From NCBI RefSeq assembly GCF_003697845.1, contig NZ_RDQE01000019.1, positions 1-32,127 on the forward strand: DNA of 32,127 nucleotides, in the 5' to 3' direction. Of the stretch, positions 1-15,375 are shown one piece after another. The notes beneath the pieces were generated by a model. It did not search any database. It was not told the origin of the DNA and saw only the letters and a program-made list of their open reading frames with translations. This stretch comes from Halobellus captivus. Its GTDB lineage: Archaea > Halobacteriota > Halobacteria > Halobacteriales > Haloferacaceae. Made by a program: the position numbers and the translations under genes. Every line of letters starts with the position of its first letter. Within the stretch, counting starts at the first letter, position 1.

Positions 1-70
1 TAGTGCCAAAAGTGTCCTTCGTCTCGTTTCGGCGCTCTCACCATGTCAGACCAGCCTCTTGCTGCCGCCG

Positions 71-415
71 CTATCGAGAGAGTGGACAACTAGCGACTTT
101 GAACGCATTTGCGTTCCGATGTGGGTGGTACTTCGCCTCATCTTTGAGTGGCGAAAGGTCCGTATGACGCGCTTCCTCGATAGAAGTGACACCAAGGTCG
201 TTCACCAGTTTGTCCGCAACACTTGTTTGCCAGCCGCCGGCGAGTGCGGCGAATGACGCGATGAAGGCAGTCTCTGACTGGGCGTGAATCTGGTTTTCGA
301 CCAAGAAGTCACGAACATCTGATATGAATTGCCGCTCAAACAGGCCCTTTTCCTCTTGTCTCCAACTCAGGTATTCCAAGAAATCTTCCAGTGAAGCGTT
401 AGCTTTCTGGGCCAT
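71..415 (-). CDS. Hypothetical protein, 114 aa
   Basis: An acidic, soluble-looking protein with no membrane segment or motif I recognise. It starts at ATG (codon 413-415) and ends at TAG (71-73). The first half is predicted helical and rich in Glu, Arg and Phe; the last 20 residues are basic and look less protein-like, so the 3' end may be decayed. It lies 90 bases downstream of another minus-strand gene (506-1051) in the low-GC accessory region and could share its transcript. No function is proposed. It is probably a real but poorly conserved island gene; a truncated remnant is the alternative. Confidence 0.5.
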   Translation of the reverse strand: MAQKANASLEDFLEYLSWRQEEKGLFERQFISDVRDFLVENQIHAQSETAFIASFAALAGGWQTSVADKLVNDLGVTSIEEARHTDLSPLKDEAKYHPHRNANAFKVASCPLSR

Positions 416-2204: not shown

Positions 2205-2267
2205 TGCTCGGATTGGACGAATATGTCTCTGACGCGTGCCACTACACCGGAGAGTTCCCAATAGGAC

Positions 2268-2501
2268 GTGACCTACAGGAGTGGAGGCGACTTCCTACAC
2301 ACCGCGAGCAAGTGCCCGGCGTCGGTGAGTCCGCACGCGCTCCGCCGCGGCTACGTCACCGAGGCGATGAACGCGGGCCAGCCGAAGGCCGTGACCGCCG
2401 ACCGCGTAGATATGTCCCGCGAAGTGATGGACAGGCACTACGACAAGTCGACGAAGAATGAGCAGATGGAACGGCGGGAGGAGTACCTCGTGGACGTGTA
2501 A
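2268..2501 (+). pseudogene. Truncated tyrosine recombinase (integrase), C-terminal remnant
   Basis: The translation carries the last two active-site blocks of a phage-type integrase: an HALRRG block (the H-x-x-R motif) and, about 40 residues later, DRHYD with the presumed catalytic Tyr. The fragment is about 77 residues against roughly 300-400 for an intact enzyme. In the same frame a TAG stop (2262-2264) lies just before the fragment, and the sequence further upstream is unrelated in every frame, so the N-terminal domain and first catalytic Arg are gone. Local GC is clearly higher than its neighbours. It is good evidence that an integrated element once occupied this region and has since been rearranged. 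Confidence 0.75.
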
Positions 2502-2513
2502 GCACTCCCTGAT

Positions 2514-2720
2514 TCAGAGTTTTCGTGAAACGACAAAATAGGTGGAAATGAGGAGTAAACCGGGCAGAACGCCAAATAGGAATCCGAGTCCCGTGACGCC
2601 GGTCCAAAGCATCTGGCGGTCGTCATCCCGGCGCTGAGTATCGAGATAGACTACAAAAGCACCGAGTATGGCGCTAACCACCGCCACAACGGCGACGATA
2701 CCGAGGAGTGGTAGAGGCAT
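2514..2720 (-). CDS. Small two-helix membrane protein, 68 aa
   Basis: Two hydrophobic segments (about residues 4-26 and 43-64) are separated by a charged loop with four Arg and Asp residues. The ATG (2718-2720) comes one base after the stop codon of the Mrr-like nuclease gene, so the two are almost certainly co-transcribed and translationally coupled. Nuclease-plus-membrane-protein pairs are common in antiphage systems, where the membrane part may act as effector or anchor; applying that here is inference. No family is recognised from sequence alone. Confidence 0.65.
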   Translation of the reverse strand: MPLPLLGIVAVVAVVSAILGAFVVYLDTQRRDDDRQMLWTGVTGLGFLFGVLPGLLLISTYFVVSRKL

Positions 2721-2721
2721 G

Positions 2722-3192
2722 TTATTCTACGTCGGGGACTTCAACCTCGGTTGTGTTAAGTAATTCGAGAATCCTGTCAGCATCATAGAGTTTTACCCCC
2801 TTTTCATCTGCCATCTCCTTCGCAGAAGTAGTGAATCCGGATGGAGAGGCAATTACGCCGGTTCCACCTCTTTCTTCAGCAGTCTCTGCGATGTTCTCCA
2901 CGGGTCTTTTTCCTACGGGCTGGCTCCATTGTTTGGCATCAATGACCAGTTTTCTTTTTCGCGGAACTATTTTCGGCCGGAAAAGTATCGACTTCAACAC
3001 ATCAATCCGGTCAGCGTCTACGTCAACACCACCGTCTTTGACCGCAGGAGTAACCTCTGCATCGTATCCTTTGGAGTCAAGTGCGGCCCCAATAAGCAAC
3101 TCCAATTCTCTCCACCCGACCTCCTGTAATCGAGACTTGTCCCACGGAGGGTCTTCTGGTTCTCCGAATAGCCCCATCAGTCGCATGTACAC
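2722..3192 (-). CDS. Mrr-like (PD-(D/E)xK) restriction endonuclease, 156 aa
   Basis: A compact Mrr_cat-type nuclease. After a short N-terminus, WRELELLIGAAL (about residues 27-38) gives the conserved first helix with its Glu. GGVDVDA (54-60) supplies the catalytic Asp, and VIDAKQW (83-89) supplies the D-x-K that replaces the usual E/Q-x-K. The following helix and the GVIASPSGFT strand complete the family pattern. Mrr enzymes cleave modified or foreign DNA. The protein lacks the N-terminal winged-helix recognition domain of full-length Mrr, so specificity must come from elsewhere, perhaps the coupled membrane protein. The GTG at 3190-3192 is drawn as the start; the ATG at 3184-3186, two codons downstream, is equally possible. 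Confidence 0.75.
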   Translation of the reverse strand: MYMRLMGLFGEPEDPPWDKSRLQEVGWRELELLIGAALDSKGYDAEVTPAVKDGGVDVDADRIDVLKSILFRPKIVPRKRKLVIDAKQWSQPVGKRPVENIAETAEERGGTGVIASPSGFTTSAKEMADEKGVKLYDADRILELLNTTEVEVPDVE

Positions 3193-4775: not shown

Positions 4776-4916
4776 TTACTGTTCCGTGAGCGCGGTCTCC
4801 GCCTTCTCGCGGAGCCGTCTCGCTTCGGTTCGGACGGATGGGTACCTGGTTTCGTCGTTGGCTATCTCGTCCATCTCATCGAGCAGAAAGGCTGTCTCTC
4901 TCGGGGTGAGTTCCAT
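4776..4916 (-). CDS. Small acidic helical protein, 46 aa
   Basis: The frame starts at ATG (4914-4916) and ends at TAA (4776-4778). The peptide begins MELTPRETAFLLDEMDEIAN and continues as a charged amphipathic helix rich in Glu and Arg, with the acidic composition of a haloarchaeal cytoplasmic protein. GAAGG directly precedes the start and a TTTTAACC element lies about 25 bases upstream, which fits a short-leader promoter. It stands immediately before the decayed frame at 4357-4770 and may have been its operon partner. Function unknown; a small regulator or antitoxin-like protein is possible. Confidence 0.5.
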   Translation of the reverse strand: MELTPRETAFLLDEMDEIANDETRYPSVRTEARRLREKAETALTEQ

Positions 4917-5411: not shown

Positions 5412-7106
5412 CTACAGAGACCAGATGTTCAGGGCGACTTCAGCGAGTTCGGAAGTCCGTTCTTGGATGGTATCGAGGTTCCAGTTGTCGTAAGTCTCTG
5501 CGACAGAGCGAGTCATAGCGATGTCCGACGTGGTGTACTCACTCTTTTTTGTCTCGAAGGGGTCGTTGCTCGCTCGGATGTTCTTGTTCGATTCGAGGAG
5601 CGTGAGGTTCCCGAGCCGGTCCCGATGCTGTTCGAACGTCGCCTGTGTAGTGTTCAACGCGGTAACCCACGCACTATGGCGGGTTGCGGTGTACGCAGAG
5701 CGAGGTGCGATGTGTTCGATGTCGTAGTCTTCCATCCGGTCCACGTTCCCGCTGTAGTGGACTTCCTCGATTCGTTTGAGCATGTACTTTGTCCGGTTAT
5801 TGAGTTTGACCCGCTTGTTCTCGATACCAGCCGTAAATTCGGCATCACTCGGGTACTTTCCGCGGAGGTATCCTCTCATCTCTTCTATAGGTTCGCTTTC
5901 ATCGAAAACAGTCGAACAGAGTTCAGAATAGATACGGTCCAACTGTCCACCAGTCGCGTAGTTAGCAACCTTCCAACGGACCAAGAACCGCTCAAGGACA
6001 CCGAGTGCTTCCATAACCTTGTTCGGATTGTCAAACTCTCGGAAGATACGCAGGAGGAGCGTTCGGGCCTGAACGGACTTGATGTGGTGGAGATGCGTCA
6101 GTTTCTCGTTGATAGCCTCGTTTCCTCCGTGGTCGTATCGGTCGATGTCCGCGTTGACTATCTGTAGATACAGCTCCGACTGGTTGGCCACGTCAGCCAG
6201 ATAGGATTCGAGCGTGAGGTCATCTGACTCGCGAACGTCGCTGATGATACCTTGGAAGGTGTCGTAGAGTTTGTAGTCGGAAACGTCGTCGGGATAGTCC
6301 GGAGCCGGTGCCGACATGATGTAGTGACGGAAGAACCGGCTCGGCTTGTTGAGGTACGGGACCGTGTTGTCAACGGTCGTTTGCCACGACTGCTTGACCG
6401 CTTCGTAATCGATATCGTCGTCTTGTGCAGCGATACTGAAGATATGGTTCTTCATCAGGTCAACCGAGGAGAGTTCCAATCCCCGCTCATTCAGGGTCTC
6501 GAACAGCCGGAACGCAGACTGTTCCTCGGTACACTCAATTGAAACAAGAGTGACAGAACTCAACAGCCGCTTTCGGAGTGTATCCGTCTCCTCTACGGTT
6601 AGACCGTGAATCCGTGAACCGAAAAATTCGAGTGCCTCGTTCAGGGTTTCGTTGTCCACCTGACCGAAGTTACAGTTGAGTATCGCTGAGAACGAGTCGT
6701 TGTCGTACCGGCTGAGAGTGAGGTTTTGGTACTCCTGCTGGTCAAGGTCCTGCTCGAACAGGTACTCATTTCGAATTGCGTCGGCCTGCCCGCTTTCCCC
6801 CTCATCGAGATACTTCTGGCGCATTACGGCGAGCATTGTGAGGATGGTCGCCATCCGCTGTTGGCCGTCAACGACTTCGAGTCGGTCCAAGTCGTTCAAT
6901 CCTGAGGAGCGTTCGATAACAACGATGGAACCGAGGAAATGTGTTTCTCCGTCGTCGAGCGCTTGGAGGTCTTCCCACAGGGCACGCCATTGCTCCTCTC
7001 CCCACGAATACTGGCGTTGATAGTCCGGAACGGTGTAGCGGTAGTTCCGGGAAAGAACGCTCTCGACGGTATCCTCGTTAGCAGAGATACCGAGACTTCC
7101 GCTCAT
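5412..7106 (-). CDS. GmrSD-like DUF262/DUF1524 restriction protein, 564 aa
   Basis: The N-terminal DUF262 part has VPDYQRQYSWG (about residues 26-36) and VVDGQQR (78-84), the ParB-like nucleotide-binding motifs of GmrS-type proteins. Near residue 460 DIEHIAPRS, followed about 30 residues later by RLGNLTLLESNKN, is the DUF1524 His-Asn nuclease motif of GmrD. This fused GmrSD layout belongs to type IV restriction enzymes, which use NTP to cut modified phage DNA; SspE and BrxU share it. I chose the ATG at 7104-7106; 29 further codons upstream are open but do not look like protein. It is downstream of the zincin and restriction-methylation genes on the same strand, with a 156-base gap that suggests its own promoter. 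Its target cannot be read from sequence. Confidence 0.85.
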   Translation of the reverse strand: MSGSLGISANEDTVESVLSRNYRYTVPDYQRQYSWGEEQWRALWEDLQALDDGETHFLGSIVVIERSSGLNDLDRLEVVDGQQRMATILTMLAVMRQKYLDEGESGQADAIRNEYLFEQDLDQQEYQNLTLSRYDNDSFSAILNCNFGQVDNETLNEALEFFGSRIHGLTVEETDTLRKRLLSSVTLVSIECTEEQSAFRLFETLNERGLELSSVDLMKNHIFSIAAQDDDIDYEAVKQSWQTTVDNTVPYLNKPSRFFRHYIMSAPAPDYPDDVSDYKLYDTFQGIISDVRESDDLTLESYLADVANQSELYLQIVNADIDRYDHGGNEAINEKLTHLHHIKSVQARTLLLRIFREFDNPNKVMEALGVLERFLVRWKVANYATGGQLDRIYSELCSTVFDESEPIEEMRGYLRGKYPSDAEFTAGIENKRVKLNNRTKYMLKRIEEVHYSGNVDRMEDYDIEHIAPRSAYTATRHSAWVTALNTTQATFEQHRDRLGNLTLLESNKNIRASNDPFETKKSEYTTSDIAMTRSVAETYDNWNLDTIQERTSELAEVALNIWSL

Positions 7107-7262
7107 GGCCTTTTGAAGACAGGTTTCGGTAATAGGTATTTCTGTTGAGTATTCTGTTAGATGGGTGCGTCGCGTTCGAAACACTACTCTCAACTTTCTG
7201 TACCGGTCCTTCAGAGAATCAAAAATTCTTCGAGCCGCAGAATTTCAGGACGAGCAACCCGG

Positions 7263-7898
7263 TTACTGTTCCGGAACGACGTACTCCGTCCTGATTTCGC
7301 CGTCTCGCTCGAAGTTAGCGAACTTAGTCTCCGGGTCCATACGAAGGAGGCGGAGGTAGTGATACAGGTCCTGCGCGGACGACGCGGAGTTGACCCACAG
7401 TACGATAGCTGCGACTCCCGCGACAAGGCCATTAGAGACGAGGAGAACTCCCACCGACAGTAGCCCAATTCCGACAAACGGCGCTATGAGCATTGCCATG
7501 TTTTCTCCGACGGAGATGCCCGTTGAGAGCGCGATAACGCGTGGATTCTTATGAAACCACATCTCCTCATACCCGTAATCAGGGTTGAGGTCCAGCTGCC
7601 TAGCCACTTCATAATGAATCCGCTCGTGAATCGGAGTGACAACTCTACGGAATAGCACGAAGAGTCCTCCCGCAAAAATGGCAACACCCCCAAAAACAGC
7701 GGGGAGAGCGGAAAGTCCTATGCTGGCTGCGAAGTCTACCCACAGAAGGACGTACGTTTCAGTCCCAGTAGCGATTGGCTGATAGGTAGTTACTCCAAAT
7801 ATGCCAATTAAAACTAGCATGACAGCGAAAACTCCACGTTCACTTCTCTCGTATTTCTTCGGCTCCGTATGACCTTCTGGTGGCCAGTTTATCGGCAT
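7263..7898 (-). CDS. DUF3267-like membrane zincin metallopeptidase, 211 aa
   Basis: The N-terminus (PPEGHTEPKKYE) is the motif that opens many haloarchaeal DUF3267 proteins. Hydrophobic segments lie at about residues 22-40, 48-84, 120-145 and 148-170. HERIH (91-95) fits the HExxH zinc-peptidase motif, and an Asp at about 177 in SSAQDLYHY could be a further ligand. The family is predicted, not proven, to cleave within or near the membrane. The ATG at 7896-7898 is preferred because the upstream in-frame residues look non-coding; a TATA-like CTTATTG lies about 26 bases upstream, fitting a leaderless message. It sits between the GmrSD-like and restriction-methylation genes, 116 bases after the latter. 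Its presence inside a defence cassette is unusual. Confidence 0.7.
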   Translation of the reverse strand: MPINWPPEGHTEPKKYERSERGVFAVMLVLIGIFGVTTYQPIATGTETYVLLWVDFAASIGLSALPAVFGGVAIFAGGLFVLFRRVVTPIHERIHYEVARQLDLNPDYGYEEMWFHKNPRVIALSTGISVGENMAMLIAPFVGIGLLSVGVLLVSNGLVAGVAAIVLWVNSASSAQDLYHYLRLLRMDPETKFANFERDGEIRTEYVVPEQ

Positions 7899-8014
7899 AT
7901 TTAAATTATTTTTCAGAACAATAAGTGTCTTGTGGTGGCATACCATGATGAAGCAAGAACAGAAACCGCCGTACTCTACCGTCGAAGCAAAAGAAATCAC
8001 AAATTGGACTTTAG

Positions 8015-11000
8015 TCAGAACACTTCAAGGTAGTCCTCAACGACCTCGCGCTCCTCCTCGGTGAGGTCGAATAGGTCGTAGACCGCATCGTCAATCTCGG
8101 CTTCGAGCGCCTCGATGTCCGTCTGCTCGACCTCGGTGCGGTCGGTCTCCAGCCGGTCGAGCAATTCCTCGACACCGCTGTCGCTTCGCGGAATCGGAAT
8201 CGTGGTCTCCTCGCCGCTCTTGACGTTCCGACCGTCCACGGCGGCGCGGACGTACTCGGCGCGCTTCTTCCGGGCCTCGCGGTCGTCGGAGTACATCGCG
8301 GGGTCGCTGATGGTGTCTGAGCGTCCCGCTTGTACGGTGAACTCGTCCTCTACGTCACCCTGTACCTCGGCACTCACCGGATAGCGACGCGTCTGCCACT
8401 CGTAGGAGATGTAGTCGAGTTCGCCGTCGTAGTCGCCGAGGTACGCCTCGGGGAAACGGTCGGTCCTGCTGTTGAGGTCGATGGTGTCCACTATCTCGCC
8501 CGCGGTCTCACGCATCGACCCGAAGACGCCCGCGCTGTCCTCCGTCAGGCAGGGGAGTTTCTCGACGTACTGTGAGCGGTATTCGTAGTATCCGCCCATC
8601 TTGACCGTCGTGATGTGCTTGAAGTAGAAGTCGAGAGCCTTCGAGTTCAACTGGCAAGCCATCTCCTCTGTGAGGTCGCGGTATGGCTCATCTAACTCAA
8701 TTCCGTAGGCTGTTTTGAAATACCACATACCCTCGCTATCCAACATAAACCTCGCTCTCTCGGAAATGTGAGCGCCGATGATTTTCGGCTTCTCGAATCG
8801 TTCGTGGCTCTTTGGATAGATGAACGCATACCAGTCATCCTGTCCGCGCATCCGTCCACTCTCGCGTCCTTCCAAAGTCTCGCGATGGGCCTCAAAGTAG
8901 TCCCATGTCAGAGGGAGATTCTCGCGGAGATACTCCTCATCATACGCTTTCGTCTGCGTTCCGTTTGCCGTCTCCTCAACGTAGTGTGGAAGGATGACGT
9001 GAAGACCCGACCACTCTCCACGCCAGCGCTCAACGTCTTTCCCCTTGAGCCACGGGCAAAGTAGGTCCGTCTCAATCTCGTATTCTCGGTTCTCTCCGGT
9101 CGGTACGACTCGTACAGTATCCCCGCTGTCTTCCGGTTCTATCCGGCCTGCATTGACCGGTGTGACCAGATACACTTTATTCGCGCTCGTCTGTGTTCCG
9201 GCGAAGATAGCATCCGTGATACTACCGAAGTCACCGGTACTGTTTGTCTCCAGTTTCTCGAAGATTTCCAACTCCTCGGGCGGCATTAGCGCCCAATAGT
9301 CCTCGGTGTCGAGTTTTGACTGCGGGTAGTCGAACACGTCGATGAACTCGTCCGAGTAGCCCGGTTCGTCACGATGGTCTCGCACCGATTCAATGACTGC
9401 TCGGTCCAACTCCCGGTCATCTTCCTCGTCATCGTTGGTATCGGCTTTTACCCGGACGCACCGAATCTCGTTGTCGTTGCGGGCGGCCTCATCGGGTTCG
9501 TCCTCCAAAATCACGATGGCCGGGTAGTTCGTCGCATCCTCGAAGACACCGGAATCCCGGAAGTCGTAGACCTCCTCGATGCGGTCGTCAAGGAGTACGT
9601 CGCGTAGCCCCTCACCATAGTCCGTGACCATGAACTGGTTCGGCGTGATAAAGCCGAGTTTCCCCGTGTCCTCGCGAAGCCAGTCGAGACCGCGCTCGTA
9701 GAACGGACAGTAGATGTCGTAGTTCCCGGTCGTCGAGTCGTACAACTGGTCCATCATCTCCTTCTGGCTGTCGGGGAGATTCTGGATGCGGACGTACGGC
9801 GGATTTCCGACGACGTAGTCGTACTCCATGTAGTTCTTGACGACGAGGGCCAGCACGGTGTCCTCGAACATCTTGAACAACCGCCCGTCGTTGTGCTCCT
9901 CTTTGAGGTAGCGGACATTCTCCAGCATGTCGTCCACGTACGGCTCGAAGAACTCCTCGACTCCCGAGTAGTCTTGAGCCGTGTAGTGATTGACGCGTTC
10001 CTCCAGCCCGCTCTGATACGACCAGTCGAAGTCATCCCCGAACTCCTCCGCGAGCGCCATGTGGTCTTTCACCGTGTCCAGCACGCCCTGAAGCGCCGCG
10101 AAGTATTCGCCGAAGTTGTTGACGCCGGTCTCCAACTGGATAGTGTCGAACAGGGGCATCCGAACGCGACGCACGAGGAACCCGTCCTCGGTTTCGGCGA
10201 CCTCGCTCTCGTCCACCTCGACGGGGAGCGGAACCGGGATGCGAACGTCCTGCTCGTCCTCGGTCATCGCGTCCCAAGTCATCTGACGGCTTCCGTCGTC
10301 GCCGATGTCCGCCCCGGTGAGTTCACGCTCGTTGCGGAGCGTGTCCGTGCGGTAGATGGGGAGTCGGCGAAGCGTGAAGTCTGGATTGCTACCCTTTGCC
10401 TTCCGATAGGCAGGGAGAATCGCAACCACGAAGCGAATCTGTGCCATCAGCACGGCGAACGGGTGGATGTCGAGACCGACGATTCGCGGTCGGGTACAGA
10501 GGTCCTGTAGGTGAAACTCCCAATCAGGGTCGTCCTCGTAGCGTTCCACATCGTCGATGTACCGGCGAACGGCTTCGACGAGGAAAGTCCCGGAACCACA
10601 CGCCGGGTCGATGAGACGCTGGTTCGAGACCCCACGCTCGTACCCCACGCCGTCCATGATGTAGTCGATGACCGGCTGTGGCGTGTAGAACTCACCGAGC
10701 GCTTTGCGCGTCTCCGGGTCGAAGTACCGCTGGTAGAGGTTTCCGAGGAGGTCGCCCTCCACGTCCGAGAAGTCGAAACGGAGAACGTTGAAAAAGACCT
10801 CCGCGACGGCGCGCGAGAAGCGGTCTCGTGTGGCCTCACTAATGCGCTCGACTGACCCCGTGCCTTCGGCTACTTCTCTGAACTGACTCGCTCCAGTCTC
10901 ATGGCCCCTCGCCAATTGTTCGGCGTACCCGTCGGTCCACCACACGAAGATGTCGTCTTGGAACAGCCCCTCGACCAACTGGTCCTGCATGTCGTCGATG

Positions 11001-11926
11001 AGGTTGTCGGCGGCGACGGGGAACGCGTCGAGGTTGATGGTGTCACTGAACCCCTGAAGACCACGGAAGTAGTCGTCCATCCCGTTGTAGCCGGTTCCGG
11101 CGAAGAACTCGTGGTCTTCTGTCGCCTTTGCCAGTAGAAGCCGAGCCAGAAGTGCGTGTCCGCTCTCCAGACAGAACATGAAGTCACGAAGCGACTGTGT
11201 CCCATCGGTGAACGGCTCCCACGAGTCGGGGACTTCGTCCGGCTCGTCTGCGTAGGTGGCTTCCCAAAAGTCGTAGGCCCCCTTCACGAACTTGGCCTCC
11301 TGCTCGTCGCGGAGTTCGTGAAGCAGGTCCATCATCCCCGTAACGAGGTTGGCGAAGGGGCTGTCCGCTTCAAGTCGGAAGGTGTCGAAGAAGTGTTCCT
11401 GACCGAGTTCGGCCTGCTGGTCCAATGGGATGGGGTCGAGGTCGGCGAGGAACTGATTCACGTCGTCGGGGTCCGTGAGGTCGAACTCGCGTTTCTGAAG
11501 TGCGCTAAACAGGTCTCGGGCGTCACTTTCCGCGACCGAACCGAGCGAGACCTCCGCAATCGGGCTGTCTTCTCCTCGGCGGTACAGCCGGAGTTCGTTC
11601 CCATTCGTCAACACACCGTATTCCGCTCGGAGGTTGTCGATGTAGTGAAACAGTTGGTCTTCGTGACCGTCGAGGTCTCGTCCGGTAGTCTTGAACTCGT
11701 AGACTGCGGTGACTGCCTCGTTCGTATCGAGAGTGATGTAGTCCGGACGGCGATTGTCCGGGAGCGTGAACTCGCTCCGGATGTCGGTTCCAGTTCCCTC
11801 GTATCCTAACGCGTCGTAGAATCCGGTTTCGAGGAACAGATTCTCCACGTCGCGCTCACTCATGTCGCCATCGGTACGCGAGCCGATAGCGTCGAGGGAA
11901 TCAAAAAACGAAGACACCTCAGGCAT
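8015..11926 (-). CDS. Single-chain restriction-methylation enzyme (type IIG-like), 1303 aa
   Basis: The head carries a PD-ExK nuclease: PD at about residues 61-62 and E-F-K at 77-79. A helical linker follows. The methyltransferase core has GEFYTPQPVIDYIM (about 411-424), motif I DPACGSGTFLVEA (440-452) and motif IV NPPY (about 708-711), the order of N6-adenine methyltransferases. The last 450 residues fit a target-recognition domain plus helical tail. Cutting and methylation are therefore on one chain, and no separate specificity subunit is nearby. PglX of BREX is similar in size but lacks the nuclease head. The ATG at 11924-11926 is chosen because GGAG stands 8 bases before it and TTTATG about 27 bases before it; GTG at 11968 and ATG at 11953 are alternatives. 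Confidence 0.85.
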   Translation of the reverse strand: MPEVSSFFDSLDAIGSRTDGDMSERDVENLFLETGFYDALGYEGTGTDIRSEFTLPDNRRPDYITLDTNEAVTAVYEFKTTGRDLDGHEDQLFHYIDNLRAEYGVLTNGNELRLYRRGEDSPIAEVSLGSVAESDARDLFSALQKREFDLTDPDDVNQFLADLDPIPLDQQAELGQEHFFDTFRLEADSPFANLVTGMMDLLHELRDEQEAKFVKGAYDFWEATYADEPDEVPDSWEPFTDGTQSLRDFMFCLESGHALLARLLLAKATEDHEFFAGTGYNGMDDYFRGLQGFSDTINLDAFPVAADNLIDDMQDQLVEGLFQDDIFVWWTDGYAEQLARGHETGASQFREVAEGTGSVERISEATRDRFSRAVAEVFFNVLRFDFSDVEGDLLGNLYQRYFDPETRKALGEFYTPQPVIDYIMDGVGYERGVSNQRLIDPACGSGTFLVEAVRRYIDDVERYEDDPDWEFHLQDLCTRPRIVGLDIHPFAVLMAQIRFVVAILPAYRKAKGSNPDFTLRRLPIYRTDTLRNERELTGADIGDDGSRQMTWDAMTEDEQDVRIPVPLPVEVDESEVAETEDGFLVRRVRMPLFDTIQLETGVNNFGEYFAALQGVLDTVKDHMALAEEFGDDFDWSYQSGLEERVNHYTAQDYSGVEEFFEPYVDDMLENVRYLKEEHNDGRLFKMFEDTVLALVVKNYMEYDYVVGNPPYVRIQNLPDSQKEMMDQLYDSTTGNYDIYCPFYERGLDWLREDTGKLGFITPNQFMVTDYGEGLRDVLLDDRIEEVYDFRDSGVFEDATNYPAIVILEDEPDEAARNDNEIRCVRVKADTNDDEEDDRELDRAVIESVRDHRDEPGYSDEFIDVFDYPQSKLDTEDYWALMPPEELEIFEKLETNSTGDFGSITDAIFAGTQTSANKVYLVTPVNAGRIEPEDSGDTVRVVPTGENREYEIETDLLCPWLKGKDVERWRGEWSGLHVILPHYVEETANGTQTKAYDEEYLRENLPLTWDYFEAHRETLEGRESGRMRGQDDWYAFIYPKSHERFEKPKIIGAHISERARFMLDSEGMWYFKTAYGIELDEPYRDLTEEMACQLNSKALDFYFKHITTVKMGGYYEYRSQYVEKLPCLTEDSAGVFGSMRETAGEIVDTIDLNSRTDRFPEAYLGDYDGELDYISYEWQTRRYPVSAEVQGDVEDEFTVQAGRSDTISDPAMYSDDREARKKRAEYVRAAVDGRNVKSGEETTIPIPRSDSGVEELLDRLETDRTEVEQTDIEALEAEIDDAVYDLFDLTEEEREVVEDYLEVF

Positions 11927-12805: not shown

Positions 12806-12973
12806 GGTTCTAATACCGTGGTTCTAACACCGATGAGTCGGGGGATTAGTACTCGTTAGTGTACACCAGTAGGGGTCTACTTGGTTCTAGTACCGTGGTT
12901 CTAACACCGATGAGGGGGAATTTGTACACCAGTAAGAGTCTACTTGGTTCTAGTACCATGGTTCTAACAAACA
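12806..12973 (+). repeat. Paired 14-bp iterons (GGTTCTARYACCG)
   Basis: Six copies of a 14-bp unit lie in one orientation, in three back-to-back pairs starting at 12806/12820, 12883/12897 and 12946/12960. The first unit of a pair reads GGTTCTARTACCGT and the second GGTTCTAACACCGA, with changes in the last pair. Two of the pairs are part of a longer near-repeat of 63 bp. Degenerate GGTTA-type copies continue at 13003 and 13047. Such arrays are typical of initiator or partition protein binding sites. Confidence 0.65.
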
Positions 12974-13050
12974 GGGTTACCCCATCTGTGTCTTCCCTTT
13001 TAGGTTATAACAAACAGGGTTACCCCATCTGTGTCTTCCCCTTTAGGTTA
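12965..13050 (+). repeat. 43-bp tandem direct repeat, two copies
   Basis: Copies at 12965-13007 and 13008-13050 are identical except for one or two bases and share the core AACAAACAGGGTTACCCC. The core contains the small palindrome GGGTTACCC. They follow the iteron pairs without a gap. Confidence 0.75.
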
Positions 13051-13289: not shown

Positions 13290-13517
13290 TCACTCCTCGG
13301 TCAGATACCAAATAAGTGAGTTCCCGGCCATCTTCGAATCAACGCGGTCTTCGTCTTGGAGTTGTTTCAGTCGGTAATCTGCGGTTCGGCGAGTACATCC
13401 GACAGCCTCAGCGACTTCACTCGTAGATGCGGGTTCTAGCTTTTTGATGCAAGCGATGAAATCTTCGTCCCCGTATTTGCGACGCGCATCGGCTCCTGGG
13501 TTCTCGGAGTCAGTCAT
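13290..13517 (-). CDS. Winged helix-turn-helix regulator, 75 aa
   Basis: After a short acidic arm, the protein is a single winged-helix domain. A helix (FIACIKKL) leads into STSEVAEAVGCTRRTADYRLKQLQ, the helix-turn-helix with its recognition helix at about residues 42-55. A basic wing follows and it ends in an IWYL strand. This is the small MarR/ArsR-type fold common in haloarchaeal viruses and plasmids. It starts at ATG (13515-13517) and is divergent from the zinc-finger gene at 13789. An inverted repeat 33-48 bases upstream of its start is a plausible operator for autoregulation. No effector-binding domain is present. Confidence 0.75.
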   Translation of the reverse strand: MTDSENPGADARRKYGDEDFIACIKKLEPASTSEVAEAVGCTRRTADYRLKQLQDEDRVDSKMAGNSLIWYLTEE

Positions 13518-13549
13518 TAGAAGACCTTGTGTTTCAACCCACTAATTCA

Positions 13550-13565
13550 TTTCCCATAAAGGAAA
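13550..13565. promoter_or_regulatory. Candidate operator, TTTCC-N6-GGAAA
   Basis: TTTCC (13550-13554) and GGAAA (13561-13565) form an exact inverted repeat with a 6-base spacer in the divergent promoter region. A further GGAAATA half-site lies near 13590. The winged-helix protein is the likely ligand by position only. Confidence 0.35.
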
Positions 13566-13600
13566 ACTACTAAGTGGTTTGCCTACATAGGAAATAAACA

Positions 13601-13671
13601 GAAGGTCGGGTCTCCTTGGGGCGTAACTCATCACGAGAACGCCCGGCGCTGGAACGCCGGACACGGCCTTC
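13601..13671 (+). other. tRNA-sized structured element upstream of the zinc-finger gene
   Basis: GAAGGTC (13601-13607) pairs with GGCCTTC (13665-13671), with one G-U pair as RNA, closing a 71-base unit. Inside are a hairpin GGGCGT/ACGCCC (13619-13624 and 13639-13644) extended by CTC/GAG, and a hairpin CCGGCG/CGCCGG (13643-13648 and 13655-13660). The two hairpins share two bases, so they compete or the second is shorter. It lacks the TTCGA loop and spacing of a tRNA. It may be a leader structure or a small RNA. Confidence 0.35.
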
Positions 13672-13687
13672 TAGCCACCAGAAGACC

Positions 13688-13792
13688 ATGCGAGCATCAG
13701 TAAGCCACCGACTTGAGCGTGTCGAACAGCACTACGTAAGCAATACTAGCCGTCTCACAGGTCCCGTCCGTCATCGGAGTGAGAACCAATGA
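13688..13792 (+). CDS. Possible 34-aa upstream peptide
   Basis: An ATG at 13688 opens a 34-codon basic peptide whose TGA (13790-13792) overlaps the ATG of the zinc-finger gene as ATGA. That overlap is the usual sign of translational coupling in this genome. The peptide has no recognised motif and no clear ribosome binding site, so it may be a chance frame or a coupling leader. Confidence 0.3.
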   Translation: MRASVSHRLERVEQHYVSNTSRLTGPVRHRSENQ

Positions 13793-14439
13793 CGGACCGG
13801 GATGCACACGAAAACGAGGAACGAACAGTAAACTGTCCGGTCAAGGGATGTAACAAGGAAGTACTGGCTCGGGGCATCTACCTGCACGTTCGTCAGAGCG
13901 CAGGCGAGGGGCACGGACCGCAGGGAGAAGTTCCAGATGACATCTCATTTGACGACCTCGAAACAGCTGGTACTAAATCTGTCCGAATGGAGTATCCGAC
14001 CGAACGCGACAGCGAAAAAGTAGCCCGGTTCTGTCCCTATTGTTCGGAAGTATTCGACGGCAAGGAGGGTGTCCGTATCCACCTCGGACAGGTCGAAGGA
14101 CGGAAGAACCACCCCCGCAACGCCAACGACTTCCATGACCCCGAGGACTTCCCCCGAGTCGCTGTAGACGACGACGGAAACGTCCAGGGTGTTGTGCACG
14201 ACTGGACCGAGGATGAGGAACTATCGGGGGATTCGCATATCCCGGCTACCAGTGTCTACCGGTACATCGCCGAACTGCTCGCCAACGACAAGCATGAAGA
14301 AGCGCAGCGAGCGCGCGCTCACCTCCTCGGGACTGGAATGGACCAGGTCGAGAGCCGACACGACATTCCCACCTCGTTGGAGGAGGCCATTGAGGCAGCC
14401 ACCAGCGATGAAGATACCGAGGATACGTCGAGACAGTAG
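13789..14439 (+). CDS. Protein with two C2H2-like zinc-binding modules, 216 aa
   Basis: Two zinc-binding modules are visible. The first is near residues 15-40 (CPVKGCNKEV...LHVRQSAGEGH), a finger with a long C-terminal spacing. The second is near residues 82-105 (CPYCSEVFDGKEGVRIHLGQ...H), a more standard C2H2 finger. The remaining C-terminal half is acidic and helical. Proteins like this are frequent in haloviruses and integrated elements and are presumed DNA- or RNA-binding. It starts at ATG 13789, overlapping the stop of a possible 34-aa peptide. A structured segment lies on each side of the gene (13601-13671 and 14474-14546), and the divergent winged-helix gene may control it. Confidence 0.7.
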   Translation: MTDRDAHENEERTVNCPVKGCNKEVLARGIYLHVRQSAGEGHGPQGEVPDDISFDDLETAGTKSVRMEYPTERDSEKVARFCPYCSEVFDGKEGVRIHLGQVEGRKNHPRNANDFHDPEDFPRVAVDDDGNVQGVVHDWTEDEELSGDSHIPATSVYRYIAELLANDKHEEAQRARAHLLGTGMDQVESRHDIPTSLEEAIEAATSDEDTEDTSRQ

Positions 14440-14853: not shown

Positions 14854-15300
14854 TAAGAGCGTGCGGTCAGCTATGGCTCGCTAGATACCCCAGGTACCTG
14901 AATGGTATCCTGTGACCATCACAGGGCACAGAGTTCCCGAATGCCTCTCCCCTCGTTACATGGTCTTGTACCATCACATTGGAGGTCGCGTTTTCGAGTC
15001 GAATCTGGATGTCGTGGGGAGTGTAGTATCAAACCCGATAGGATTCTGTTCTAACTCCAAACGCTGGTTAGAGTCGTATCTCTACCCTCATCGCAGCTGT
15101 GACCACTATTGCTCTTCCGGGCGGTCAAAGATTCGGAGTGTAAACTTATTGTCTGTCGGACCCTCCTTTTTGCTAACCGTGGGACGGCGACCGGACCAGA
15201 GGGAACCAACCGCTCAACGGTTGAATTGGATTCGAGGTCTCAGACCCAAACCACCGTAATGCGACAGTACAGGCTCCTTCAAAGCAGTTTAGGCAAAAAG
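14854..15300. other. Island margin without recognisable genes
   Basis: Open frames exist on the plus strand, but none has acidic composition, a ribosome binding site or a motif. I see no attachment-site copy of the tRNA-Val 3' end here. The stretch is the junction between the low-GC island and the core chromosome. Confidence 0.4.
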
Positions 15301-15375
15301 TGGGTCGGGGCGGATTCGAACCGCCGACCTGCTCCGTGTGAAGGAGCCGTCATAACCGGACTAGACCACCGACCC
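15301..15375 (-). tRNA. tRNA-Val (anticodon CAC)
   Basis: On the minus strand a 7-bp acceptor stem (GGGTCGG/CCGACCC) is complete. The anticodon arm GCTCC-TTCACAC-GGAGC gives anticodon CAC, and the T arm GGCGG-TTCGAAT-CCGCC is canonical. The discriminator base is A and CCA is not encoded. It marks the border between island (on the 3' side of the tRNA) and core genome. That position fits integration at a tRNA 3' end, although no second copy of the 3' end is visible in the window. Confidence 0.95.

What the first reader, a model, noticed from the sequence alone, without database searches (positions are those of the whole stretch)
5412..11926. Restriction-methylation enzyme, membrane zincin and GmrSD protein in a row
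Three same-strand genes are stacked: a PD-ExK plus N6-adenine methyltransferase single chain, a DUF3267-like membrane protein with HExxH, and a fused DUF262/DUF1524 protein. The first and last are known defence types that cut unmodified and modified DNA respectively. A membrane metallopeptidase between them is not part of any standard system I know. It could be an effector that cleaves a membrane or secreted target when the nucleases sense infection, or an unrelated passenger. Gaps of 116 and 156 bases allow separate promoters.
Basis: partly seen in the sequence, partly recalled or inferred. Interest (0 to 1): 0.65.

Follow-up and report, generated by a model that had tools for sequence, protein, structure and literature searches.

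The report
Restriction cassette with optional membrane protease
A salt-loving archaeon carries a mobile cassette of two complementary DNA-cutting defence enzymes with a membrane-embedded protease gene between them; the protease is real and travels with the pair in at least two genera, but close relatives carry the pair without it, so it looks like an optional extra rather than a part of the DNA-cutting machine.

Summary
The three genes are real: a type IIG-like restriction-methylase (8015-11926), a DUF3267 protease (7263-7898) and a fused GmrSD (5412-7106), all on the minus strand, with gaps of 116 and 156 bases. The protease is modelled confidently (pLDDT 94) with a site-2-protease-like core. 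HExxH and a distal Asp are invariant in 16 aligned relatives.

The same trio occurs in a second genus (G396; 78/71/95% identity), at an unrelated chromosomal site. DNA homology there covers almost exactly the trio. The protease shows purifying selection (dN/dS 0.14) and the same synonymous divergence as the methylase (dS 1.28 vs 1.23), so the linkage is old and the gene works.

It is nevertheless facultative. Haloparvum sedimenti has the methylase and GmrSD (92-96% identical) with no protease; Halobiforma haloterrestris has a different gene in the same slot. About 40 other methylase loci lack the protease. Its more distant subfamily members lie beside McrBC, CBASS, Hachiman, or no defence system at all.

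The recurrent unit is methylase plus GmrSD, a known kind (compare BREX with BrxU). Best reading: two independent restriction layers plus an autonomous S2P-clan protease in an exchangeable cargo slot. A nuclease-triggered effector is not supported, but not excluded.

The parts
8015..11926 (-). Type IIG-like restriction-modification enzyme (1303 aa): N-terminal PD-(D/E)xK (RPD-x14-EFK), N6-adenine methylase (DPACGSGTF, NPPY), TaqI-like specificity domain
   Evidence: motifs invariant in 42/42 relatives; ~48 genomes hold relatives of at least 45% identity
7263..7898 (-). DUF3267 membrane metalloprotease of the site-2-protease clan (211 aa), HERIH at residues 91-95, distal Asp177
   Evidence: AlphaFold model pLDDT 94.1; five best VIA-align matches are all S2P proteases, Z 5.6-6.7; dN/dS 0.14 against G396
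5412..7106 (-). Fused GmrSD (DUF262+DUF1524), BrxU-like type IV restriction enzyme (564 aa)
   Evidence: DGQQR and EH...P invariant in 25 relatives; 95-96% identical in G396 and Haloparvum sedimenti
7107..8014 (-). Variable slot between methylase stop and GmrSD start: zincin here and in G396, no convincing gene in H. sedimenti (466 bp), a 329-aa coiled-coil protein in Halobiforma haloterrestris
   Evidence: blastn homology of the pair stops at the methylase stop codon and resumes at window 7146-7150, 40-44 bp before the GmrSD ATG
7107..7150 (-). Conserved block before GmrSD (AACAGAAATACCTATTA, TATA-like element centred about -27), present in 5 genomes with unrelated upstream DNA: probable own promoter
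   Evidence: inference
7919..7931 (-). AAGACACTTRTTG at about -27 before the zincin ATG, shared with G396: probable own promoter
   Evidence: two sequences only, inference
13789..14439 (+). C2H2 zinc-finger-like protein, divergent from the methylase; related sequence upstream of the methylase in H. sedimenti, Halobiforma and G396 (there degraded)
13290..13517 (-). Small winged-helix protein (75 aa), recurrent neighbour of this methylase family
15300..15375 (-). tRNA-Val (CAC) at the boundary between the low-GC island (46-62%) and the high-GC chromosome (62-74%)
   Evidence: no second copy of the tRNA end found in the contig

Best explanation
The locus is a mobile haloarchaeal restriction cassette. 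Its core is two independent enzymes: a single-chain type IIG-like enzyme that methylates its own adenine motif and cuts DNA lacking the mark, and a BrxU-like fused GmrSD that uses nucleotide hydrolysis to cut DNA with modified bases. A virus that evades one by modifying its DNA is exposed to the other. Between them lies an exchangeable cargo slot. Here, and in one other genus, it holds an intact, selected S2P-clan intramembrane protease with its own promoter-like element, which most likely acts alone on a membrane-protein or small membrane-peptide substrate encoded elsewhere (host or invader) and is not needed for DNA restriction. Shown: gene identities, intact motifs, conserved linkage, facultative slot, purifying selection, S2P-like model. 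Inferred: enzyme activities, promoters, substrate, independence of function.
For: Motifs and domains. Pair recurs: window, H. sedimenti, Halobiforma, G396, and distantly G219; other PglX-like methylases are also followed by GmrSD in G063, G146 and G011. Slot boundaries and three unlike contents. Trio as unit in G396 at another locus, homology confined to the trio. dN/dS: methylase 0.12, zincin 0.14, GmrSD 0.04; zincin dS 1.28 equals methylase dS 1.23. The zincin subfamily occurs without these enzymes beside McrBC (L125), CBASS (L122), Hachiman (L192), or none. S2P fold and a DUF3267 member proven to be an S2P-clan protease (PMC13252029). BrxU and PglX act as two separable layers (PMC8565348).
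Against: Two trios at dS of about 1.2 means the zincin was kept beside these enzymes for a long time, which mild functional coupling would also explain. The methylase comparison pairs the window with H. sedimenti (92%), so the zincin was probably lost there, not merely never gained. Promoter elements are read from few sequences. No activity has been tested.
Confidence: 0.66

Rival explanations
1. The zincin is itself an antiviral gene that happens to sit in defence islands: it cleaves a viral or host membrane protein on infection, or processes a small membrane peptide that kills the infected cell, independently of both nucleases.
For: Besides the two trios, three independent subfamily members lie within about 3 kb of other defence systems: McrBC 51 bp away (L125), CBASS cyclase + 2TM effector (L122), HamA/HamB (L192). 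The known DUF3267 enzyme processes a pore-forming membrane peptide (PMC13252029).
Against: Enrichment is not significant on these counts: 4 of 9 independent subfamily loci against about 3 of 12 DUF3267 control loci, Fisher P = 0.40. Several relatives sit in plasmid transfer regions, a provirus-like region or ordinary chromosome. No substrate gene is shared between the two trio islands. No known defence family matched.
Confidence: 0.2
2. Integrated three-part system: DNA damage or target sensing by the nucleases activates the membrane protease as an abortive-infection effector.
For: Same strand, fixed order and similar spacing in two genera, equal divergence of methylase and zincin.
Against: H. 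sedimenti and Halobiforma keep the intact pair without it; about 40 methylase loci and all other GmrSD loci mapped lack it; the zincin has no soluble sensor domain in its 211 residues; the genes appear to have separate promoters.
Confidence: 0.09
3. Neutral hitch-hiker: the zincin has no role in the island and is on its way out.
For: Absent from the slot in two of four close pairs.
Against: Intact frame, catalytic residues kept, dN/dS 0.14 over dS 1.28, moved with the cassette between genera.
Confidence: 0.05

Closest known systems
BREX + BrxU defence island of pEFER (PMC8565348)
   Same: PglX adenine methylase beside a fused DUF262/DUF1524 type IV enzyme; two complementary, separable layers; type IV gene inserted as an extra
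   Different: Here no BREX genes (PglZ, BrxC, BrxL); the methylase carries its own PD-(D/E)xK nuclease; a protease gene occupies the space between the two
RloF and other R-linked ORFs inserted in type I RM loci (discussed in PMC4619093)
   Same: GmrSD-family and other genes carried as cargo between RM genes
   Different: Type IIG-like single-chain enzyme rather than hsdRMS; the cargo in question is a membrane protease
Type IIG restriction-methylases of Halobacteria (e.g. HVO_A0079, HVO_A0237; PMC5867850)
   Same: N6-adenine methylases annotated as type IIG in haloarchaea; haloarchaeal RM genes are patchy and mobile (PMC6471742)
   Different: This family is longer (about 1300 aa); target motif unknown; no match to the H. 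volcanii megaplasmid among the rows shown
TmcP, DUF3267 protease of the TMcin pathway in Staphylococcus (PMC13252029)
   Same: PF11667, HExxH plus distal Asp, S2P-clan fold, small membrane protein
   Different: TmcP has a dedicated substrate (TmcA) and escort (TmcE) in its operon; no such gene is shared here; activity shown only for TmcP

Membership tests
Type IIG restriction-modification enzyme | one chain with nuclease, methylase and specificity parts | tested here: met
   PD-(D/E)xK, N6 methylase and TaqI_C in one 1303-aa chain; motifs invariant in 42/42. The Pfam HSDR_N_2 hit itself is below cut-off, so the nuclease rests on the motif
Type IIG restriction-modification enzyme | cuts DNA lacking its own methylation | not testable with these tools
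   needs purified enzyme or a restriction assay
BREX PglX | curated model score | tested here: not met
   BREX-2 PglX 137 bits against cut-off 400; BREX-1 52.8 against 500
BREX PglX | accompanied by PglZ and BrxC/BrxL | tested here: not met
   none recognised among the island genes scanned
GmrSD / BrxU type IV enzyme | DUF262 and DUF1524 fused, with DGQQR and HNH-type motif | tested here: met
   both Pfam domains far over cut-off; DGQQR and EH...P invariant
GmrSD / BrxU type IV enzyme | cleaves modified DNA | not testable with these tools
   specificity varies in the family; not predictable from sequence
DUF3267 (PF11667) | score over curated cut-off, HExxH | tested here: met
   45.3 bits against 27.1; H91 E92 H95 invariant in 16
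Site-2 protease clan | membrane helices carrying HExxH, with a distal Asp as third ligand | tested here: met
   D177 invariant; helical model with HExxH inside a long helix; residue roles by analogy with TmcP H68/D158
Site-2 protease clan | S2P core fold | tested here: inconclusive
   top five VIA-align rows are all S2P (Z 5.6-6.7) but under Z 8; Foldseek lists 3b4r at E 1.5
Site-2 protease clan | intramembrane proteolysis | not testable with these tools
   substrate unknown
Three-gene defence system | three genes inherited together in most occurrences | tested here: not met
   zincin in 2 of about 43 methylase loci and 2 of 5 methylase-GmrSD pairs

The most novel reading that the evidence does not exclude
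The DUF3267 subfamily is a membrane-level antiviral module that plugs into different DNA-targeting defence systems (type IIG+GmrSD, McrBC, CBASS, Hachiman), cleaving a membrane protein or activating a membrane peptide when infection is sensed.
Probability: 0.12. Interest if true: 0.75.

Novelty: new variant of a known kind. Interest (0 to 1): 0.4.

Why it matters
It shows a restriction cassette with a defined cargo slot: the same methylase-GmrSD pair in related haloarchaea holds a membrane protease, another gene or nothing there. Natural with/without pairs make the role of the protease directly testable. It also puts an S2P-clan protease, from a family with a first proven substrate reported in a 2026 preprint, into defence islands, which could link DNA restriction to events at the membrane if a phenotype is found.

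Tried and rejected
Trio as fixed system: rejected, since relatives keep the pair without the zincin. Chance adjacency: rejected, because of the second trio in another genus with equal divergence. My own early conclusion after 391 genomes, that the trio was unique to the window, was overturned when the whole family was searched with a profile. BREX, MADS and DISARM as home of the methylase: scores far below cut-offs or marker genes absent. Defence enrichment of the zincin subfamily: suggestive but not significant (Fisher P = 0.40); the Dna2-like helicase near L123/L194 scores on MkoA, but the other neighbours form a transglutaminase operon, so I did not count it as firm defence. A companion substrate gene near the zincin: none shared between the two islands. 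Viral or phage copies of the zincin: none found. Profile scans of the public collections failed because the alignment was too divergent. An att repeat of the tRNA end inside the contig: none. Solved-structure sequence search with the zincin profile: nothing meaningful. Gene calls on relatives are from a simple codon-usage caller of my own; small genes may be missed.

Full report
What was checked. The window is the whole contig G000:C11 of a 3.6-Mb haloarchaeal genome. It is probably Halorubrum: G205, whose contig matches Halorubrum halodurans NZ_NHPJ01000099 in length and position, is classed in the same genus. The first 15.3 kb have 46-62% GC and end at a tRNA-Val; the rest has 62-74% GC. The three genes lie in this low-GC island, all on the minus strand.

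The outer two enzymes. The first is a 1303-aa chain with Eco57I/N6 methylase and TaqI_C domains and type IIG matches in PADLOC. An N-terminal RPD...EFK nuclease motif, DP.CGSGTF and NPPY are identical in all 42 aligned relatives, so both activities look alive. It fails the BREX PglX models (137 bits against 400). The last is a fused DUF262/DUF1524 protein with DGQQR and EH...P invariant in 25 relatives. From its family, established for GmrSD and BrxU, it should cut modified DNA using nucleotide hydrolysis. BrxU and PglX in the pEFER island protect against different phages and work apart (PMC8565348).

The middle gene. It is PF11667/DUF3267. In 16 relatives H91, E92, H95, P140, N170 and D177 are invariant. 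The AlphaFold model has pLDDT 94. In the VIA-align second look the top five chains are all site-2 proteases (RseP from three species and the M. jannaschii enzyme; Z 5.6-6.7), standing a little above unrelated rows. By the tool's own caution this Z alone would be weak, but it agrees with the conserved residues and with a 2026 preprint in which a DUF3267 enzyme, TmcP, is shown to be an S2P-clan protease needing its HExxH histidine and distal aspartate (PMC13252029). So 'zincin' is right, and more precisely it is a small S2P-like intramembrane protease. Its substrate is unknown.

How often are they together? In 391 Halobacteria genomes I searched each protein and mapped genes around 80 loci. The methylase family is patchy: about 48 genomes hold relatives of at least 45% identity. 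GmrSD follows it on the same strand in the window, G196 (Haloparvum sedimenti), G321 (Halobiforma haloterrestris, split over two contigs) and, more distantly and with a gene between, G219. Random placement would give about 0.002 such cases. Other PglX-like methylases are followed by GmrSD in G063, G146 and G011. In that sample the zincin stood beside a methylase only in the window. A profile search of the window's whole family (170 genomes) then found a second trio, in G396, a different genus: methylase 78%, zincin 71%, GmrSD 95% identical, gaps 62 and 159 bases. Its flanks are different: coaD-like and disA/mscS-like genes and an integrase. DNA homology to the window runs almost exactly from methylase start to GmrSD stop; outside it only a degraded copy of the zinc-finger gene is shared. 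The same kind of profile in 125 and 126 genomes of two other families found no further trio.

A slot. Aligning the pair across genomes, homology stops at the methylase stop codon and resumes 40-44 bases before the GmrSD start. Between lie the zincin (window, G396), 466 bases without a convincing gene (H. sedimenti) or a 329-aa coiled-coil protein (Halobiforma). The 40-odd bases before GmrSD are conserved in five genomes with unrelated upstream DNA, and carry CCTATTA at about -27; the zincin has AAGACACTTRTTG at the same distance in both genomes. I read these as own promoters (inference).

Selection and history. Between window and G396, dS is 1.23 (methylase), 1.28 (zincin) and 0.53 (GmrSD), with dN/dS 0.12, 0.14 and 0.04. 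Methylase and zincin have thus most simply been together since the two copies parted, and the zincin is under purifying selection. GmrSD has either been exchanged more recently or is more constrained at silent sites. The window methylase is closer to that of H. sedimenti (92%) than to G396 (79%), so the zincin was probably lost in H. sedimenti, whose pair has remained intact and constrained (dN/dS 0.03-0.06). That is a natural deletion of the zincin with the two enzymes kept.

Where do other zincins of this kind live? Eleven subfamily members were found in about 459 genomes. Besides the two trios: 51 bp before McrB-McrC in a same-genus strain (L125); 1.3 kb from a CBASS cyclase and 2TM effector (L122); about 2 kb from HamA-HamB on a Haloplanus plasmid (L192); and beside transfer genes, sensor kinases, provirus-like genes or chromosomal genes in the rest. 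Against neighbours of other DUF3267 genes (CRISPR I-D and a few others) this is not a significant excess (P = 0.40). DUF3267 in general is common: 176 of 391 genomes.

Interpretation. The evidence supports a mobile two-enzyme restriction cassette with an exchangeable slot, in which the protease is a functional but optional passenger. I put 0.66 on this, 0.20 on the protease being an antiviral gene in its own right, 0.09 on a nuclease-triggered effector and 0.05 on a neutral hitch-hiker. The methylase-GmrSD pairing is a known kind; the S2P-type protease as its cargo has not, to my knowledge, been described (six papers in the library hold the term DUF3267; from their titles and abstracts none concerns restriction systems, and only the TMcin paper was read).

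Noticed in passing
window 2514-3192 (-): Mrr-like nuclease (156 aa, PF04471 7.5e-19) directly followed by a 68-aa hydrophobic ORF: a possible further nuclease plus small membrane protein pair in the same island.
   Followed up: no
window 2235-2501 (+): Broken remnant of a tyrosine recombinase (one stop inside); a 335-aa homologue with 90% DNA identity over this stretch lies in H. sedimenti, so the two islands share an integration module.
   Followed up: partly
window 12806-13045: Imperfect direct repeats in a 1.3-kb gap upstream of the methylase (GGTTCTARTACCGTGGTTCTAACACCGATGAG, spacing 63-77, then a 43-bp doublet); a 36-base stretch is 97% identical in the Halobiforma locus. Long unannotated gaps of 0.7-1.7 kb before the methylase recur in several genomes.
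   Followed up: partly
window 13290-14439: A small winged-helix gene and a divergent zinc-finger gene are recurrent upstream neighbours of this methylase family (about 10 and 4 loci).
   Followed up: partly
window 4776-4916 (-): 46-aa acidic ORF downstream of GmrSD, 89% identical in H. sedimenti while surrounding DNA is about 77%: a likely real small gene missed by length cut-offs.
   Followed up: no
L084:11805-13013, L095:11865-13004, L114:11915-12931: A 340-400 aa protein resembling only the N-terminal nuclease part of type IIG enzymes sits convergently just after the methylase in several genomes: another recurrent slot gene.
   Followed up: partly
L083, L088, L097, L104, L159, L193: The methylase and/or GmrSD repeatedly occupy one chromosomal hotspot between a coaD-like gene and a disA-like/mscS-like gene pair in different genera.
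   Followed up: partly
window 1-96: Contig end is 97% identical to part of a Natrinema pellirubrum plasmid (NC_019967), so the contig probably breaks in a repeated mobile element.
   Followed up: no
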